This document shows, piece after piece, positions 56,971-63,354 of a stretch of DNA of 64,000 nt (position 1 is the stretch's first letter; the number at the start of each line of letters is the position of its first letter). Below the pieces are notes generated by a model. It ran no database searches, was not told the origin of the DNA, and saw only the letters and a program-made list of their open reading frames with translations. Location of the stretch: the NCBI GenBank assembly GCA_016235245.1, contig JACRLO010000032.1:3413-67412 (forward strand). The letters run 5' to 3'. Made by a program: the position numbers and the translations under genes. Source of the stretch: Nitrospirota bacterium (GTDB lineage Bacteria; Nitrospirota; Thermodesulfovibrionia; Thermodesulfovibrionales; UBA6898).

Positions 56971-57305
56971 TTAGACGGCTACCTTTTCTTCAAGTGCCTT
57001 CTGTACGAGTTGATTCAGGAAAACGCCCATCATTGTAGCCTTTGCAGCTGCCTTCCTGTGTAGGTCTGTGGGTATCCTTACATTGAAACTCCCTTAAAGG
57101 GTTTCTGCGGCTCCCGGCACATCTGCCTGCATGTCTCAAGGTAATCATCAACCGCCTCATGGAACGCCCTCTTAAGCTCCTTAACGCTTGTTCCTTCAAA
57201 CATAATAAGGTCGTTTATGGCTTCAATCTTGCCGTGAAAAACCTCGTCCTCTTCGCTGTAGTGGACCGTACCAATATAGCCTTTATAAGTCATTGAATCG
57301 CTCAT
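56971..57305 (-). pseudogene. hicB: HicB-type antitoxin, frameshifted
   Basis: The first 70 codons (MSDSMTYKGYIGTVHYSEED, VFHGKIEAINDLIMFEGTSV, then FHEAVDDYLETC) are the HicB N-terminal domain. After EPQKPFKG the frame runs into a stop, but the next frame continues SFNVRIPTDLHRKAAAKATM and VFLNQLVQKALEEKVAV, the ribbon-helix-helix/HicB C-terminus. A one-base deletion around 57097-57101 explains both. No hicA toxin is next to it; a 30-codon frame upstream overlaps its start by ATGA and could be a partner relic. It lies between the two brnA-end repeats. Confidence 0.8.
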
Positions 57306-57385: not shown

Positions 57386-57488
57386 CCGTTGAGTTGTGGA
57401 CCCTGTTTGGCAGGCGTCTTTTCTTCAATTTATCCTTAATTTTCCTTCATTGAATTTATGAATCAGCATCGATATGAGAGATTGATAC
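57386..57488. repeat. 103-bp direct repeat, copy 2 (3' end of brnA)
   Basis: The original copy: it covers the last 21 codons of the BrnA-like gene (stop at 57425) and about 40 bases beyond. Same orientation as 56853-56955, 533 bases apart. Confidence 0.85.
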
Positions 57489-57700
57489 GGCAGTCCTTCC
57501 TCAATTGCCTTGGCCTGAATTTTTTTCAGGTCTCGTTCCGTCATCCGTATATTTATCCGTTTTTGCTTGTTCAGGCTATAGCGGGCGTATTCCTCGTATT
57601 GTTTCTTGTCCTTTTTAGTTAGATCAGAAACCCATTCTTCCTTTTCAAGCGATCTTTCCAATTCCATTTCATCTTTATCTAAGCGTGCTGTTTTTTTCAT
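57425..57700 (-). CDS. brnA: BrnA-like antitoxin
   Basis: A 91-residue, highly charged antitoxin. The N-terminal half is acidic (KDEMELERSLEKEEW) and the C-terminal half has a ribbon-helix-helix-like segment NKQKRINIRMTERDLKKIQA ending GLPYQSLISMLIHKF. It follows the BrnT-like toxin with a four-base ATGA overlap, the standard brnTA order. BrnA binds BrnT and represses the operon. Its 3' end is duplicated 530 bases downstream. Confidence 0.82.
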   Translation of the reverse strand: MKKTARLDKDEMELERSLEKEEWVSDLTKKDKKQYEEYARYSLNKQKRINIRMTERDLKKIQAKAIEEGLPYQSLISMLIHKFNEGKLRIN

Positions 57701-57975
57701 GTCTTGCCTCCCAAATATTTCCTTGTCTCTTTGCTGTTTGGAATTATTGTTTTTAAAAATATTTTTTCGCTGTCTTCAACATACGGCACGGAATAGACAT
57801 AATTTTCGATTCTAACCAGAAAAACTTTTTGATTTGGATATTTATCAGGATTGGGATGCCGCATTCGGTCAAGCAAATCGCCGGACGCAATTGCCAGCTC
57901 AACCTGTTCAAATGAAACTCCGCGCTCTTTCTTGAGCAATTCATTCTTTTCATCATTCCAGTCGAAGAATTTCAT
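57697..57975 (-). CDS. brnT: BrnT-like toxin
   Basis: A 92-residue protein from the ATG at MKFFDWNDEKNELLKKERGV, the usual BrnT opening (F-x-W-D-x-x-K). Later blocks are SFEQVELAIASGDLLDRMRH and KVFLVRIENYVYSVPYVEDS, and the end is IIPNSKETRKYLGG. BrnT has a RelE-like fold and is a ribonuclease that arrests growth. AAGG nine bases upstream supports this start; the longer frame adds 19 codons. Paired with brnA, both A+T-rich. Confidence 0.82.
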   Translation of the reverse strand: MKFFDWNDEKNELLKKERGVSFEQVELAIASGDLLDRMRHPNPDKYPNQKVFLVRIENYVYSVPYVEDSEKIFLKTIIPNSKETRKYLGGKT

Positions 57976-58231
57976 GAATGGATGCCTTTTGTATTCATGT
58001 CCTATAATATCAAGGCTGCATGGCCCTGTCAAATAGGCTTTTGTCTCTGTTTGTTATTTCGTCCTGGCCGTTATTAAGCCGTTATTAAGGTCGCTGATTT
58101 CTTCGGTATCTTCACAGAAGCGGGATAGGGAAAAATCAAAGAAACATGTACCAACGGAATAAGCATATAAGGATTTATTTCAGCATATCCGTCTCCCGTG
58201 ATCTGTATTTTGTGCAACATCAGGGTTTATA

Positions 58232-58909: not shown

Positions 58910-59088
58910 ACACCATGCAGGTTCAATTCTGACTGTCTCCTTCTGGGCCTGAGTTTGTAGACGTTGATGCTTTTAGTGCATAGCGATTTCTTCCTTATGA
59001 CCCTTCAACTGGCGTTTGATGATAGTTGTATTAACCCCAGGATGACGCTCACTCTCGGCCTATGAATACTCGATTTCTTCCTTGAGAG

Positions 59089-59196
59089 AAAATAGGGACA
59101 CATCTCAACTAATAAGTTTCGTTTTTATTCCCAGCTATGCCGCAACAAGTGCTTATTCTGATTTCTTCGATCTAAATTGGGATGTGTCCCTATTTT
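59089..59196. mobile_element. 108-bp MITE-like element with perfect 16-bp terminal inverted repeats
   Basis: AAAATAGGGACACATC at the left end (59089-59104) and its exact reverse complement at the right (59181-59196). No coding capacity. Similar GGGACACATC-type ends are seen at small elements and remnants in other bacteria, but the parent transposon is unknown. The right end lies inside the coding sequence of the SpoIIM-like gene, whose last codons come from the element. Confidence 0.65.
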
Positions 59197-59592
59197 TTCA
59201 GCAAAGACGGCTGGCAATTCGAAAATGCCATGAGGCAATAGCCTCAGTAGCTCTATCTCCGCATTTGGCTTAGTTATAGATGCTATTGTTGCTCCAATTA
59301 ATATGCCATTGGTAATAGCCGCCAAAGACGGAACAATTCCAAGCACTGCACCTAACAAAATAGAAATCAAAGCAGAAATGCTATTTTTAACAAAAATAGA
59401 GAGGATTAAGCCATACATATTTTGATGGAGAAGCCCCTTGGCCATTTTACCAAAAGCCAGCAAAAAGCCTTTGAATGTATCGGGATTAATATATCCAATC
59501 AAGATCCCCACTGAAAACAGCGTCATAGCAGCATAGATGTACTTTGCAGACTGTCCGATAAAGCCGCCTAATTCTTGGTAACGTTTTTTCAT
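59125..59592 (-). CDS. SpoIIM/DUF95-like membrane protein, 3' end altered by an inserted element
   Basis: A 155-residue membrane protein resembling the stage II sporulation protein M/DUF95 family: FSVGILIGYINPDTF, LSIFVKNSISALISILLGAV, LGIVPSLAAITNGILIGATI and the family mark LRLLPHGIFELPAVF. After FELPAVFAE the sequence changes to IGTHPNLDRRNQNKHLLRHS, which is encoded by the MITE-like element, so the natural last helix is lost. The family is widespread outside spore formers; function in membranes unclear. It is the fourth small membrane-protein gene of the probable cassette array. Confidence 0.7.
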   Translation of the reverse strand: MKKRYQELGGFIGQSAKYIYAAMTLFSVGILIGYINPDTFKGFLLAFGKMAKGLLHQNMYGLILSIFVKNSISALISILLGAVLGIVPSLAAITNGILIGATIASITKPNAEIELLRLLPHGIFELPAVFAEKIGTHPNLDRRNQNKHLLRHSWE

Positions 59593-59605
59593 GTGCTATA
59601 TATTA

Positions 59606-59662
59606 TTTTCAATTGACAGAACGCCAGCGATAAGGCGAGGTGGCAACCGGCCAAATTGAAAA
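59606..59662 (-). repeat. Possible degenerate attC site or terminator
   Basis: Outer arms TTTTCAATT/AATTGAAAA with partial inner pairing (GCCA/TGGC) just downstream of the gene ending at 59674. Position fits the attC of that cassette, but the core sites are poor. A simple terminator is an alternative. Confidence 0.35.
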
Positions 59663-59673
59663 CTAAAAAGCGC

Positions 59674-60174
59674 TTATTCACCGTCGCCTTGATTTGATTG
59701 TTCAGTGGCATTTATTATTTGCGTTCCAACCTTTTGACCACGATAGTATCGGACCACTTGCACAGGAATAAGAACCAATGCTATGACGGCGACCACAATG
59801 GGAATATAACCATACGGAGACCACCCAAGGACATTAGAATACCACAAAAACAAGACCAATAAAGTTAGTAAAATCACACAAGCTAATATCATAAATGCTG
59901 TTGAAAACAGAGTTGCCGACAGATTTGCCAAGGCGGTCGGCTTCTTTGTTCCATAATTTTGTCGTTTGATATATCGTGAAACCTGGATAGGAATAAGTGC
60001 CCAACCCAATGCGGGAATCCCGATGAATAAAGCATTAGGGATATTCCGCTCGAATGTAATACCGAGGAGTAAAAGCAATGCAAAAAAACCACCAATCAAA
60101 AACCAGCCCAAAATCATTAATCCTAAAGATCCATAAACGACTGCGTTCTTGTTTTTCTTAGTTTTTAGGGTCAT
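59674..60174 (-). CDS. Small four-helix membrane protein, probable integron cassette gene
   Basis: A 166-residue protein with four hydrophobic helices in two similar pairs: LGLMILGWFLIGGFFALLLL and FIGIPALGWALIPIQVSRYI, then LACVILLTLLVLFLWYSNVL and IPIVVAVIALVLIPVQVVRY. Both pairs end in a P-x-Q-V-x-R-Y motif, so the protein is an internal duplication. The C-terminus is short and charged. No family recognised. An attC-like repeat lies directly upstream of its ATG region (60216-60272), as expected for a promoterless cassette gene. Confidence 0.7.
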   Translation of the reverse strand: MTLKTKKNKNAVVYGSLGLMILGWFLIGGFFALLLLLGITFERNIPNALFIGIPALGWALIPIQVSRYIKRQNYGTKKPTALANLSATLFSTAFMILACVILLTLLVLFLWYSNVLGWSPYGYIPIVVAVIALVLIPVQVVRYYRGQKVGTQIINATEQSNQGDGE

Positions 60175-60215
60175 TTGCTTCTCTCATAAATTATAAATAT
60201 TTTCAGTTATCATTC

Positions 60216-60272
60216 ACTGAACAATGAGTTCACACGCCGCGAAGCGGTCGGCGTGGAACGATTCGTTATCAC
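60216..60272 (-). repeat. attC-like recombination site
   Basis: Arms GTTCACACGCCG (60228-60239) and CGGCGTGGAAC (60249-60259) pair except for one extra A, the extrahelical base typical of attC sites. The outer ends pair through AAC/GTT. The loop is nine bases. On the minus strand the core GTTCAGT ends the site and the next gene starts about 40 bases later. Confidence 0.65.
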
Positions 60273-60318
60273 TTTTCAATTTATAGGATGGGGCTAGTAA
60301 CACTAGGATCGACTGCTT

Positions 60319-60681
60319 CTAGCTTGTGACAAAGCCAAAATATTTTTTGACCTGATGTTTTTTTAAATAATTTAGAGTCTTATATGAAATAATAGTGCCG
60401 ACAGGAAAAGCTAGGACAAGAGTGTAAAGAATAAATTTGAACAAGAAATAACCCCATTTCGAAAATCTCAATATTCCCATTCCCGCAATCAAATAAAAAG
60501 CTGTACTAATTGTTACGAACCATATCGCAATCTCCGATGGAGGATTTTGACCGAATATGTATGCCCATGACTTTGGATTCAACCAGATATTACCAAAAAA
60601 AAGAAATCCCACAACGGCAAGCCCGATCAAGATGATGCCAATCTTCTTTAGGAGTTTTATTTGTTCGCTATTATCTGACAT
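60319..60681 (-). CDS. Small membrane protein, probable integron cassette gene
   Basis: A 120-residue protein with three or four hydrophobic helices: IGIILIGLAVVGFLFFGNIW, IAIWFVTISTAFYLIAGMGI and YFLFKFILYTLVLAFPVGTI. The C-terminus is basic (YLKKHQVKKYFGF). A+T-rich compared with the chromosomal genes. No family recognised. It lies between two attC-like repeats and reads in the same direction as the other three small genes. Confidence 0.68.
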   Translation of the reverse strand: MSDNSEQIKLLKKIGIILIGLAVVGFLFFGNIWLNPKSWAYIFGQNPPSEIAIWFVTISTAFYLIAGMGILRFSKWGYFLFKFILYTLVLAFPVGTIISYKTLNYLKKHQVKKYFGFVTS

Positions 60682-60721
60682 TTATCTTCTGTCTCTATTT
60701 CGGGACTGGGCTCGTCCGACC

Positions 60722-60817
60722 TGATAACGAGGTGCATCAGCCGACGCGCGCCACATACGCTTGAATGAAAAACGCGCCACGCTTATTCGCGGTCGGCTGG
60801 ATGCTGGTGTTAGCGCC
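60722..60817 (-). repeat. attC-like recombination site
   Basis: GCATCAGCCGAC (60734-60745) pairs with GTCGGCTG-G-ATGC (60792-60804) apart from one extrahelical G. Outside this, TAAC (60725-60728) pairs with GTTA (60809-60812). On the minus strand the site runs from GCGCTAAC to GTTATCA, and the next gene's ATG follows about 40 bases later. Best-preserved site of the array. Confidence 0.75.
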
Positions 60818-60821
60818 TGTC

Positions 60822-61199
60822 TTATTTTTCATTAGATTTCTCTGTCATGCTGTAGGAAATTGCTATCACAATGGAAATTGGCAATCCAAAAAGGAAGACA
60901 ATTACGTATGACATGGAGGCACCACCACCTCTATATGGCAAAACAAATTCAGGAATGTTTGCATATATTACAAATGGCAATAATGCTACGGCAGCAGCTG
61001 TACTAGCCGAATATTTCTTTTTTTCATATGCAACTAGAGCTGGAATTAATATCAATGTTGTAGCCAATAATATCCCGCTGAGACCACAAAGTCGGAAAGT
61101 TAAATCCTTGTAGCTTGGTATTGAGGCAAATATAGCTTGCATTAAATAGAATGCGATTAAGGTTATTTTTGCAGTTTTATGCCGTGATATTTTATTCAT
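60822..61199 (-). CDS. Small membrane protein, probable integron cassette gene
   Basis: A 125-residue protein with four hydrophobic helices: ITLIAFYLMQAIFASIPSYK, LSGILLATTLILIPALVAYE, STAAAVALLPFVIYANIPEF and YVIVFLFGLPISIVIAISYS. Short charged tail (MTEKSNEK). A+T-rich, no known family. Its ATG is only seven bases after the core GTTAGCGC of the upstream attC-like repeat, and its stop is five bases before the next one, exactly the packing of integron cassettes. Confidence 0.7.
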   Translation of the reverse strand: MNKISRHKTAKITLIAFYLMQAIFASIPSYKDLTFRLCGLSGILLATTLILIPALVAYEKKKYSASTAAAVALLPFVIYANIPEFVLPYRGGGASMSYVIVFLFGLPISIVIAISYSMTEKSNEK

Positions 61200-61205
61200 A
61201 TTATT

Positions 61206-61356
61206 GCGCTAACATAGGGCGCTGAGCGACTGCGACGGAGGCGGGAGGACGGAAGGTCCGGTAGCCTGCAGGAAGCAGTGCGCTCCAGCGGATTGATGGG
61301 CGGCCTCTATCAGAGGCCGGACAGCGAGATGCTGGGAGCAAGCCCAGCGCCCTATG
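61206..61356 (-). repeat. Large attC-like site (VCR-like length)
   Basis: A perfect 12-base inverted repeat CATAGGGCGCTG (61213-61224) / CAGCGCCCTATG (61345-61356) with an inner hairpin GGCCTC-TATCA-GAGGCC (61302-61318). On the minus strand the site ends GTTAGCGC directly before the gene at 60822-61199. The total length of about 150 bases is at the upper end for attC sites. It would belong to a preceding cassette whose gene is no longer recognisable. Confidence 0.6.
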
Positions 61357-61360
61357 AAGG

Positions 61361-61692
61361 GCGGGGGCCTCCCTATTGGTATTCATTGTCACTGCCCATT
61401 GTATCATCTGTTATTGTGGGCAGGGACATCTTTATTTCTCTCGCCCTTCAATTACTCTACCAACTTGGTTTTTACTGGGTCTCATCGCAAGATGATAGCA
61501 TAGCCCTCTGAGCTTGGGAAGACTAAAGTAAGCAAAATCAAAGGGTAATGTTTCTGGCAAAAGGTATTTGCTGTTATTACGGACTAAAAGCCAACTTGCC
61601 AAAACATGGGCTTATAGCAGGGTACTTTTCGCAGACTGACCTTGATATTCTGAGGTCAAGTTTCATTGAATGTCTTCCAAACTAATCACCTG
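61361..61692. other. Gene-free stretch, no feature recognised
   Basis: About 330 bases between the last attC-like repeat and the end of pgi. A plus-strand frame of 77 codons (61278-61511) crosses the repeat and was not accepted. No integrase, promoter or terminator was found here. It could be the eroded remains of further cassettes. Confidence 0.45.
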
Positions 61693-63354
61693 CTATCTGC
61701 CCTCTCCTCTCATCTCTTTCCAGACATTGATCAGGCCGTTGGTTGATGCGTCGTGGGAGGTGACCTCAGAACCGCTCTGCATCTCCGCAAGTATCTTCTT
61801 TGCGAGCACCTTGCCGAGTTCAACGCCCCACTGATCAAAGCTGAAGATGTTCCAGATTACGCCCTGAACAAAGATCTTATGCTCGTACATCGCAATCAGG
61901 CTGCCGAGCGTTCTGGGCGTGACCTTCTTCAGAAGAATCGAATTGGTAGGCCGGTTGCCGCTAAAAACCCTGAAAGGCGCGAGCCTTTTAATCTCTTTTG
62001 CGGACTTGCCTGAGGCAGCCAATTCAGCGGCCACCTCGTCGTATGTCTTGCCCTTCATGAGCGCCTCGGTCTGGGCAAAGAAGTTCGAAAGCAGTATGTC
62101 ATGATGATCGCCCAACGGGTTATGGCTGATGGCAGGCGCAATAAAATCGCAGGGTATCATTTTAGTGCCCTGGTGAATGAGCTGGTAAAAGGCATGCTGG
62201 CCGTTCGTGCCGGGCTCTCCCCAGATCACCGGCCCGGTCTGATACGATACCTCCCTTCCCTTCCGGTCGATGCTTTTGCCGCTGCTCTCCATATCTCCCT
62301 GCTGAAAATAGGCCGGGAACCTGTGCATATACTGGTCATACGGCAGGAGCGCGTGGGTCTCTGTGCCAAAAAAATTGTTATACCAGATGCCAAGCAGCGC
62401 GAGGATTACCGGTATGTTCCGGTCAAGAGGTGTCTCCCTGAAATGCCGGTCCATGGCATGGCCGCCTTCAAGCAGTTCCCGGAAATGGTCGAAGCCGATT
62501 GAGCAGGCAATCGAAAGCCCGATGGCCGACCAGAGGGAATATCTGCCGCCGACCCAGTCCCAAAACACAAACATATTTTCAGGCGCTATGCCAAATTTCT
62601 GCACTTCAGGCTCGTTGGTTGAGATCGCCACGAAATGCTTTTTTATATGCGATTCATCCTTCGCAGCCTCAAGAAACCATCTGCGTGCCGTGTGGGCATT
62701 GGTCATCGTCTCCTGCGTGGTGAAAGTCTTCGATGCGATCATAAAAAGGGTCGTTTCAGGGGAAAGCTCCTTCAGGGTCTCAGCAATATGGCTGCCGTCA
62801 ATGTTTGAGACAAAGTGTGTCCTGATATGTGGCTTGCGGTACGGCATGAGCGCCTCGGTAACCATGACCGGGCCCAGGTCAGAGCCTCCGATGCCGATGT
62901 TCACGATATCGGTCACCGGCTTGTTGGTATAGCCCTTCCATGATCCGTCAATGACCTTCAAGGAAAAGCGTTCGATCTGACCCAAAACAGCATTCACCTC
63001 AGGCATGATATCTTTATTGTTTATGACAACAGGTGTATTTGAGCGGTTTCTAAGCGCGGTATGAAGCGCCGCACGATCTTCAGTCTCGTTGATCCGTTCG
63101 CCTGAAAACATCTTCTCAACAGCGCCGGTAACGCCGGCTTCACGGGCAAGATTAACCAGGAGCGGCAGCGTCTCCTCGTTCATGATATTTTTCGAGTAAT
63201 CGAAGAGCATATCCTCAAACCAAAGGGAATACTTCTGAAACCGGTTGGGTTCTTCGCCAAACAGGTCTTTCATCTGCCGGTCTTTCATCACACTGAAATG
63301 CGCCTTCAGCTCTTTCCATGCAGCAGTCTTTACCGGGTTCTGCTTTTCAAGCAT
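61693..63354 (-). CDS. pgi: Glucose-6-phosphate isomerase
   Basis: A 553-residue enzyme interconverting glucose 6-phosphate and fructose 6-phosphate in glycolysis/gluconeogenesis. The family signatures are present: [53 protein letters not shown] (PGI signature 1) and [16 protein letters not shown] (signature 2). Length is normal for the long bacterial form. GGGGAGG before the ATG supports the start, three bases after the stop of the RNase gene, so the two are co-transcribed. Confidence 0.97.

What the first reader, a model, noticed from the sequence alone, without database searches (positions are those of the whole stretch)
59600..61360. Probable integron cassette array of small membrane-protein genes without an integrase
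Four same-strand small genes are separated by imperfect palindromes with attC hallmarks: AAC/GTT outer pairing, complementary arms with single extrahelical bases, and tight packing of start and stop codons against the repeats. All four products are small membrane proteins of unknown function and none has a recognisable own promoter.
Basis: partly seen in the sequence, partly recalled or inferred. Interest (0 to 1): 0.66.

Follow-up and report, generated by a model that had tools for sequence, protein, structure and literature searches.

The report
Integron cassette array missing its integrase
This stretch is a relic gene-capture platform (an integron) in a Nitrospirota bacterium: it keeps its docking site, promoter-like leader and five captured cassettes, but has lost the neighbouring integrase gene; one cassette probably protects its owner against a rival's toxin.

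Summary
Read on the minus strand downstream of pgi, 61610-59125 is an integron without an integrase: a leader/attI remnant (61610-61450) with a conserved Pc-like promoter, a non-coding cassette 0 (61449-61213), three complete cassettes for small membrane proteins (125, 120 and 166 aa), and a fourth (SpoIIM-like) whose end is lost in an inverted-repeat element. The strongest evidence is that the first bases of each cassette are the reverse complement of the R'' box of that cassette's own attC (14 of 15 variable positions, P about 4e-8); the two boxes inside each integrated attC match less well. Cassette 0 recurs in two congeners behind different sites and before different genes, so it is mobile. 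The leader lies between intI and the first cassette in relatives. A covariance model from relatives' attCs puts site C first in the whole window, but a class-1-type model finds none of the sites, so a standard attC scan could miss this array. The genome encodes one integron integrase, on another contig, with a 9-residue deletion, and carries two more integrase-less leader-plus-cassette loci. Cassette 2 resembles an orphan Rhs-toxin immunity gene. New member of a known kind (CALIN).

The parts
61693..63354 (-). pgi (glucose-6-phosphate isomerase), chromosomal flank upstream of the array and co-directional with it
   Evidence: PF00342 E 4e-239; the flank stays alignable to congener G002 down to 61662, then diverges
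61450..61610 (-). Integron leader / attI remnant (~160 nt), ending ...GGTAGAGTAATT at the first cassette; core GTT replaced by GAA
   Evidence: Aligned to 13 other leader sequences; same element lies between the intI start and first cassette in G009:C19 and G023:C123
61492..61520 (-). Pc-like promoter TTCCCA-17-TATCAT with TG extension, pointing into the array
   Evidence: TTCACA-17-TG.TATCAT or TATTAT in several other leader copies
61213..61449 (-). Cassette 0, non-coding, ~237 nt, starts G|AAGGGCG
   Evidence: Homologous cassette in G002:C8, G007:C73, G007:C54 behind different sites
61206..61363 (-). Site A: attC of cassette 0 (R'' CGCCCTTC, R' GTTAGCGC), long hairpin
   Evidence: fold z -5.9 and -4.2; start/R'' complementarity 8/8
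60822..61199 (-). Cassette 1 gene, 125 aa, 3 predicted membrane segments
   Evidence: no Pfam, NCBIfam or PADLOC match; no relative found in GTDB contigs
60721..60816 (-). Site B: attC of cassette 1 (R'' GCGCTAAC, R' GTTATCAG)
   Evidence: hairpin score 14.6; only its inner arms seen by R2, 5.6 bits; 78% identical to an attC-like stretch in the G017 intI locus
60319..60681 (-). Cassette 2 gene, 120 aa membrane protein, probable orphan Rhs-type immunity protein
   Evidence: Homologues (46-48%) directly 3' of Rhs_assc_core genes; toxin domain not found in own genome
60215..60272 (-). Site C: attC of cassette 2 (R'' GTGATAAC, R' GTTCAGTG)
   Evidence: best hit of lineage attC model R2 in the window, 19.5 bits, E 0.047 over 64 kb, 0.0022 over 3 kb
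59674..60174 (-). Cassette 3 gene, 166 aa, 5 predicted membrane segments; its last codons lie inside its attC
   Evidence: only two marginal relatives in 176 genomes of the order
59615..59707 (-). Site D: attC of cassette 3 (R'' CACTGAAC, R' GTTCTGTC)
   Evidence: hairpin 11.2; 89% identical over 76 nt to an attC in G009:C118 that scores 33 bits
59125..59592 (-). Cassette 4 gene, SpoIIM-family membrane protein, probably truncated; its own attC not found
   Evidence: PF01944 E 1.6e-12, profile 2-113 of 163; no full-match GACAGAAC R'' box downstream
59086..59199 (.). 23-nt inverted-repeat (MITE/REP-like) element covering the 3' end of cassette 4
   Evidence: pair I1

Best explanation
The region is the surviving part of a chromosomal integron whose integrase gene has been lost, a CALIN that keeps its attI/Pc leader. 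Shown here: the leader homology, cassette boundaries, attC sites, mobility of cassette 0 in relatives, and absence of intI at the locus. Inferred: an IntI of the clade that sits beside this leader elsewhere ('clade C') once inserted cassettes one by one at the leader's attI, cutting after the G of GTT and using the folded bottom strand of each attC; intI was then deleted, leaving only ~50 nt between the pgi flank and the leader. The array is probably still transcribed towards lower coordinates from the leader promoter and perhaps by read-through from pgi, giving small membrane proteins; cassette 2 most likely confers immunity to an Rhs-type toxin of other bacteria. The array is probably frozen, because its attI core is mutated and the only other IntI in the genome belongs to another clade and lacks nine residues of the DNA-binding domain.
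For: Boundary complementarity 8/8, 7/8, 8/8 (P 4e-8) against 5, 3 and 6 of 8 within the integrated sites. The same fingerprint occurs in intI-adjacent arrays of relatives such as L087, L083, L185. R2, built from 26 attCs without window sequence (covariation score 0.42 vs 0.16 shuffled), ranks site C first in the window. Site D homologue 33 bits. Cassette 0 follows the leader in the window and G007:C54, attC-like sites in G002:C8 and G007:C73, and is followed by different genes. Leader lies between intI and first cassette in G009:C19 and G023:C123. intI deletion is caught elsewhere: G019:C7 has residues 1-27 followed directly by 393-430 beside an intact leader; G007:C73 keeps residues 403-431. 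No array at pgi in relatives.
Against: Model R1 from 17 class-1-type attCs does not rank any window site; R2 gives site C only modest significance and misses full-length B and D. Sites B and D fold no better than most shuffles or only slightly so. R''/R' boxes depart from RYYYAAC/GTTRRRY. The attI core is GAA, so the leader is a remnant. No intI relic was found in the window, so loss by deletion is inferred from relatives.
Confidence: 0.9

Rival explanations
1. Off-target CALIN: an IntI encoded elsewhere in the genome inserted cassettes at a secondary site behind pgi, and no intI was ever there.
For: The genome has a trans IntI on C35 and CALINs can form this way (PMC8618304).
Against: A leader homologous to the intI-adjacent attI region lies exactly at the head of the array, which a random secondary site would not supply.
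Confidence: 0.08
2. Satellite platform: leader/attI copies spread through the genome without intI and are loaded in trans by the single IntI on C35.
For: Three integrase-less leader-plus-cassette loci in this genome (C32, C14, C41) with start/R'' matches up to 8/8, 7/8 and 6/8; similar loci in G005 and G007.
Against: IntI on C35 is of a different clade, has a 9-residue deletion, and the leader motif was not found beside it; intI relics beside leaders elsewhere favour local loss.
Confidence: 0.12
3. Ordinary operon of small membrane-protein genes with REP-like or terminator palindromes between them.
For: Genes are co-directional with pgi, and palindromes are common in intergenic DNA; hairpins alone are no rarer than in shuffles.
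Against: Boundary complementarity, patchy distribution of the genes, mobile cassette 0, homologous leader at intI.
Confidence: 0.02
4. Assembly artefact: intI was dropped or split off in the draft genome.
For: The genome is a 41-contig draft; several intI contigs of relatives end close to their array.
Against: The array lies inside a 98-kb contig with pgi on one side, with only ~50 nt of unassigned DNA between the pgi flank and the leader.
Confidence: 0.03

Closest known systems
CALIN (cluster of attC sites lacking an integron integrase; IntegronFinder, PMC9024848)
   Same: Several attC-bounded co-directional cassettes and no intI nearby
   Different: Keeps an attI/Pc leader and a non-coding cassette with a GAA/TTC core; attC boxes too divergent for a class-1-type model. 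In RefSeq complete genomes IntegronFinder 2.0 reported only two CALINs from the Nitrospira phylum
Integrase-less chromosomal integron of Treponema phagedenis (PMC3607928)
   Same: Chromosomal array with attC sites left after loss of intI
   Different: Here the leader is also identified, and intI deletion is seen in progress in related genomes; the paper describes the loss at the level of a lineage
Complete integrons of the same order (e.g. G009:C19, G017:C87, G030:C5)
   Same: attC consensus and boundary fingerprint; leader shared with G009:C19
   Different: Those keep a clade C intI
Orphan immunity gene arrays of Vibrio cholerae T6SS (PMC5361080)
   Same: Immunity genes kept without their toxins, accumulating in an array
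   Different: There the authors found no evidence of an integrase; here the candidate immunity gene sits in an attC-bounded cassette
Delta-attI-type cassettes of mobile integrons (PMC12901181)
   Same: attI sequences found away from their usual place beside intI
   Different: Those are short attI fragments replacing an attC behind a gene; here a full-length leader stands in front of the array

Membership tests
Integron cassette array / CALIN | At least two attC sites | tested here: met
   Sites A-D by hairpin plus boundary fingerprint; by covariance model only site C stands out
Integron cassette array / CALIN | attC covariance model hit above the usual threshold at each site (IntegronFinder model) | tested here: inconclusive
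   IntegronFinder's own model not available; R1 misses all window sites, R2 finds site C only, E 0.047
Integron cassette array / CALIN | AAC/GTT triplets at the two ends of attC | tested here: met
   Sites B, C, D; site A has TTC/GTT
Integron cassette array / CALIN | Full RYYYAAC / GTTRRRY consensus boxes (a consensus, loosely kept even in intI-adjacent arrays of this order) | tested here: not met
   7-mers CGCTAAC, TGATAAC, ACTGAAC and GTTATCA, GTTCAGT, GTTCTGT depart from the consensus; boxes of the same kind occur in intI-adjacent arrays of relatives
Integron cassette array / CALIN | Start of each cassette complementary to R'' of its own attC | tested here: met
   8/8, 7/8, 8/8 and, for cassette 0, 8/8
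Integron cassette array / CALIN | Cassettes are mobile between positions | tested here: met
   Cassette 0 in four different contexts; not shown for cassettes 1-4
Integron cassette array / CALIN | No intI at the locus | tested here: met
   TIGR02249 over its cut-off only on C35; no relic in the window by tblastn
Complete integron | intI next to attI | tested here: not met
Functional attI | Core GTT and IntI binding sites at the head of the array | tested here: inconclusive
   Leader conserved but core is GAA in the window; binding not testable
Rhs toxin-immunity pair (cassette 2) | Gene directly 3' of an Rhs toxin tip | tested here: inconclusive
   Met for homologues in G013 and G022; in the window itself the gene stands alone and the toxin tip is not found in the genome
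Rhs toxin-immunity pair (cassette 2) | Neutralises the toxin | not testable with these tools
   needs co-expression

The most novel reading that the evidence does not exclude
In this Nitrospirota family, integrons work as multi-locus systems: attI/Pc leaders are scattered over the chromosome as integrase-less satellite platforms, each loaded with cassettes by an IntI encoded elsewhere in the cell, and stocked in part with orphan immunity genes against Rhs-type toxins.
Probability: 0.12. Interest if true: 0.75.

Novelty: new member of a known kind. Interest (0 to 1): 0.42.

Why it matters
It adds a well-dissected integrase-less integron from a phylum where few had been reported (PMC9024848), shows that class-1-type attC models can miss such arrays while start/R'' complementarity recovers them, catches integrase deletion in relatives, and suggests orphan immunity genes as cassette cargo, a testable role for small membrane-protein cassettes of unknown function. 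The several integrase-less leader loci in one genome ask whether attI platforms can be served in trans.

Tried and rejected
Rfam gathering-threshold scan of the window: no hits. Class-1-type attC model R1: no site in the array. Enrichment of membrane proteins among the lineage's cassettes: 13 of 22 with at least one membrane segment against 28 of 70 background ORFs; suggestive only, no significance claimed; the literature gives about a third of cassettes with signal peptide or membrane domains (PMC10963911). PADLOC: no defence family for the four proteins. Cassette 1 in GTDB contigs and cassette 2 in IMG/VR: no relatives. AlphaFold2 model of cassette 2 (mean pLDDT 77, helical) had no significant PDB match. 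An early idea that repeat 61449-61213 was a transposable element was dropped because it follows an attI leader or attC-like sites and ends in an attC. An early idea that the leader was a riboswitch or general promoter repeat was dropped because it sits between intI and the first cassette in G009:C19.

Full report
Setting. The window is contig C32 (98 kb) of a 3.25-Mb draft genome (41 contigs, 96% complete). Named records that encode the same proteins as relatives G013 and G022 are titled Nitrospirae bacterium, so the organism is taken to be a Nitrospirota member. pgi (63354-61693, minus strand) precedes four small minus-strand genes.

Observation. A hairpin scan anchored on AAC and GTT found minus-strand palindromes at 60811-60726 (B), 60267-60220 (C) and 59702-59620 (D). 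Such hairpins alone are not rare in shuffled sequence, and single-strand folding is exceptional only for the long upstream palindrome A and for C. The sequence offers a sharper test. A cassette inserted from a circle starts with bases that complement the R'' box of its own attC. The starts GTTAGCGC, GTTATCAG and GTTCAGTG match the R'' boxes GCGCTAAC, GTGATAAC and CACTGAAC at 8, 7 and 8 of 8 positions, while the two boxes inside each integrated site match at only 5, 3 and 6. Fourteen of 15 variable positions gives P about 4e-8 (that run mis-set the first start by one base, corrected).

attC models. R1, from 17 attCs of plasmid integrons, did not hit the array. R2, from 26 attCs of intI-adjacent arrays in relatives and containing no window sequence (covariation score 0.42 against 0.16 shuffled), ranked site C first in the 64-kb window (19.5 bits, E 0.047) and saw only the inner arms of B. 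Site D is 89% identical over 76 nt to an attC in G009:C118 that scores 33 bits. Site B resembles an attC-like stretch in the G017 intI locus.

Leader and cassette 0. Window 61610-61450 belongs to a conserved ~160-nt element found in several relatives. In G009:C19 it lies between the intI start codon and the first attC, and in G023:C123 it follows the 5' part of an intI and runs into a cassette whose start matches its attC 8/8. Copies elsewhere end ...GGTATAGTAATT|GTT; the window copy ends ...GGTAGAGTAATT|GAA. The element carries a promoter of the form TTCACA-17-TG.TATCAT in several copies, TTCCCA-17-TATCAT here. Behind it lies a non-coding cassette, 61449-61213, whose start GAAGGGCG matches its R'' CGCCCTTC 8/8. 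Homologous cassettes in G002 and G007 start GATGGGGCG and end CGCCCCATC, sit behind the leader or attC-like sites, and are followed by different genes. A relaxed middle base of the GTT core is known for IntI1 (GNT, with GAT used; PMC10127599).

Integrase. The genome's only TIGR02249 hit over the cut-off is on C35 (364 bits at genome level, 369 for the protein), beside its own attC (34.4 bits) and a cassette start that matches that attC's R'' box 8/8. Compared with the G003 orthologue it lacks nine residues (WLRAFLSYC) of the N-terminal domain. Three IntI groups occur in the order; the leader in the window goes with another group (clade C) than C35. G019:C7 keeps intI residues 1-27 directly followed by 393-430 beside an intact leader, and G007:C73 keeps residues 403-431, so local deletion of intI is a documented route in the family.

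Other loci. In this genome C14 and C41 also have leader, gene and attC without intI. In G003 an attC and a 117-aa gene lie next to the conserved left flank of the window region. Relatives lack the array behind pgi.

Cargo. Cassette 2 has 46-48% identical homologues in G013 and G022 placed directly after Rhs-core genes (TIGR03696) and before the next rhs gene; the toxin tip is not found in G000, G002 or G003. A homologue in Candidatus Manganitrophus is not next to rhs. Immunity is therefore a good but untested inference. Cassettes 1 and 3 have no clear relatives; cassette 4 is SpoIIM-like and probably truncated by the inverted-repeat element.

Verdict. A chromosomal integron without its integrase but with leader and cassettes, a new member of the CALIN kind, with precedent in Treponema phagedenis (PMC3607928). 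Whether the platform can still be served in trans is open.

Noticed in passing
window 57425-58032 and 57078-57305: CopG/BrnT-type toxin-antitoxin pair and a HicB-like gene lie between the conserved left flank and the array; the BrnT stretch is 74% identical to G009:C36.
   Followed up: no
window 59086-59199: 114-nt element with 23-nt inverted ends (AAATAGGGACACATC) covering the 3' end of the SpoIIM-like gene; MITE or REP-like.
   Followed up: partly
L195 289-480 (G019:C7): intI reduced to residues 1-27 followed directly by 393-430 beside an intact leader: an internal deletion.
   Followed up: partly
L069/L001 (G000:C35:32962-34179): The genome's integron integrase lacks nine residues (WLRAFLSYC) present in the G003 orthologue.
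   Followed up: partly
L118 (G007:C73): Array with four attC hits, cassette 0 and an intI C-terminal relic, no intI.
   Followed up: partly
L123 and L130 (G005:C94, G007:C121): Two congeners share a leader copy in front of the same 88-aa gene, suggesting an old, stable integrase-less locus.
   Followed up: no
L121 5342-6896 (G000:C20): Two near-identical pilin-like genes with a fragment of cassette 0 between them.
   Followed up: no
L205 3420-5351 (Candidatus Manganitrophus GAC4): Cassette 2 homologue lies among small same-strand genes, with a GTTAGGC core and attC-like half-sites by eye; R2 gave no hit.
   Followed up: partly
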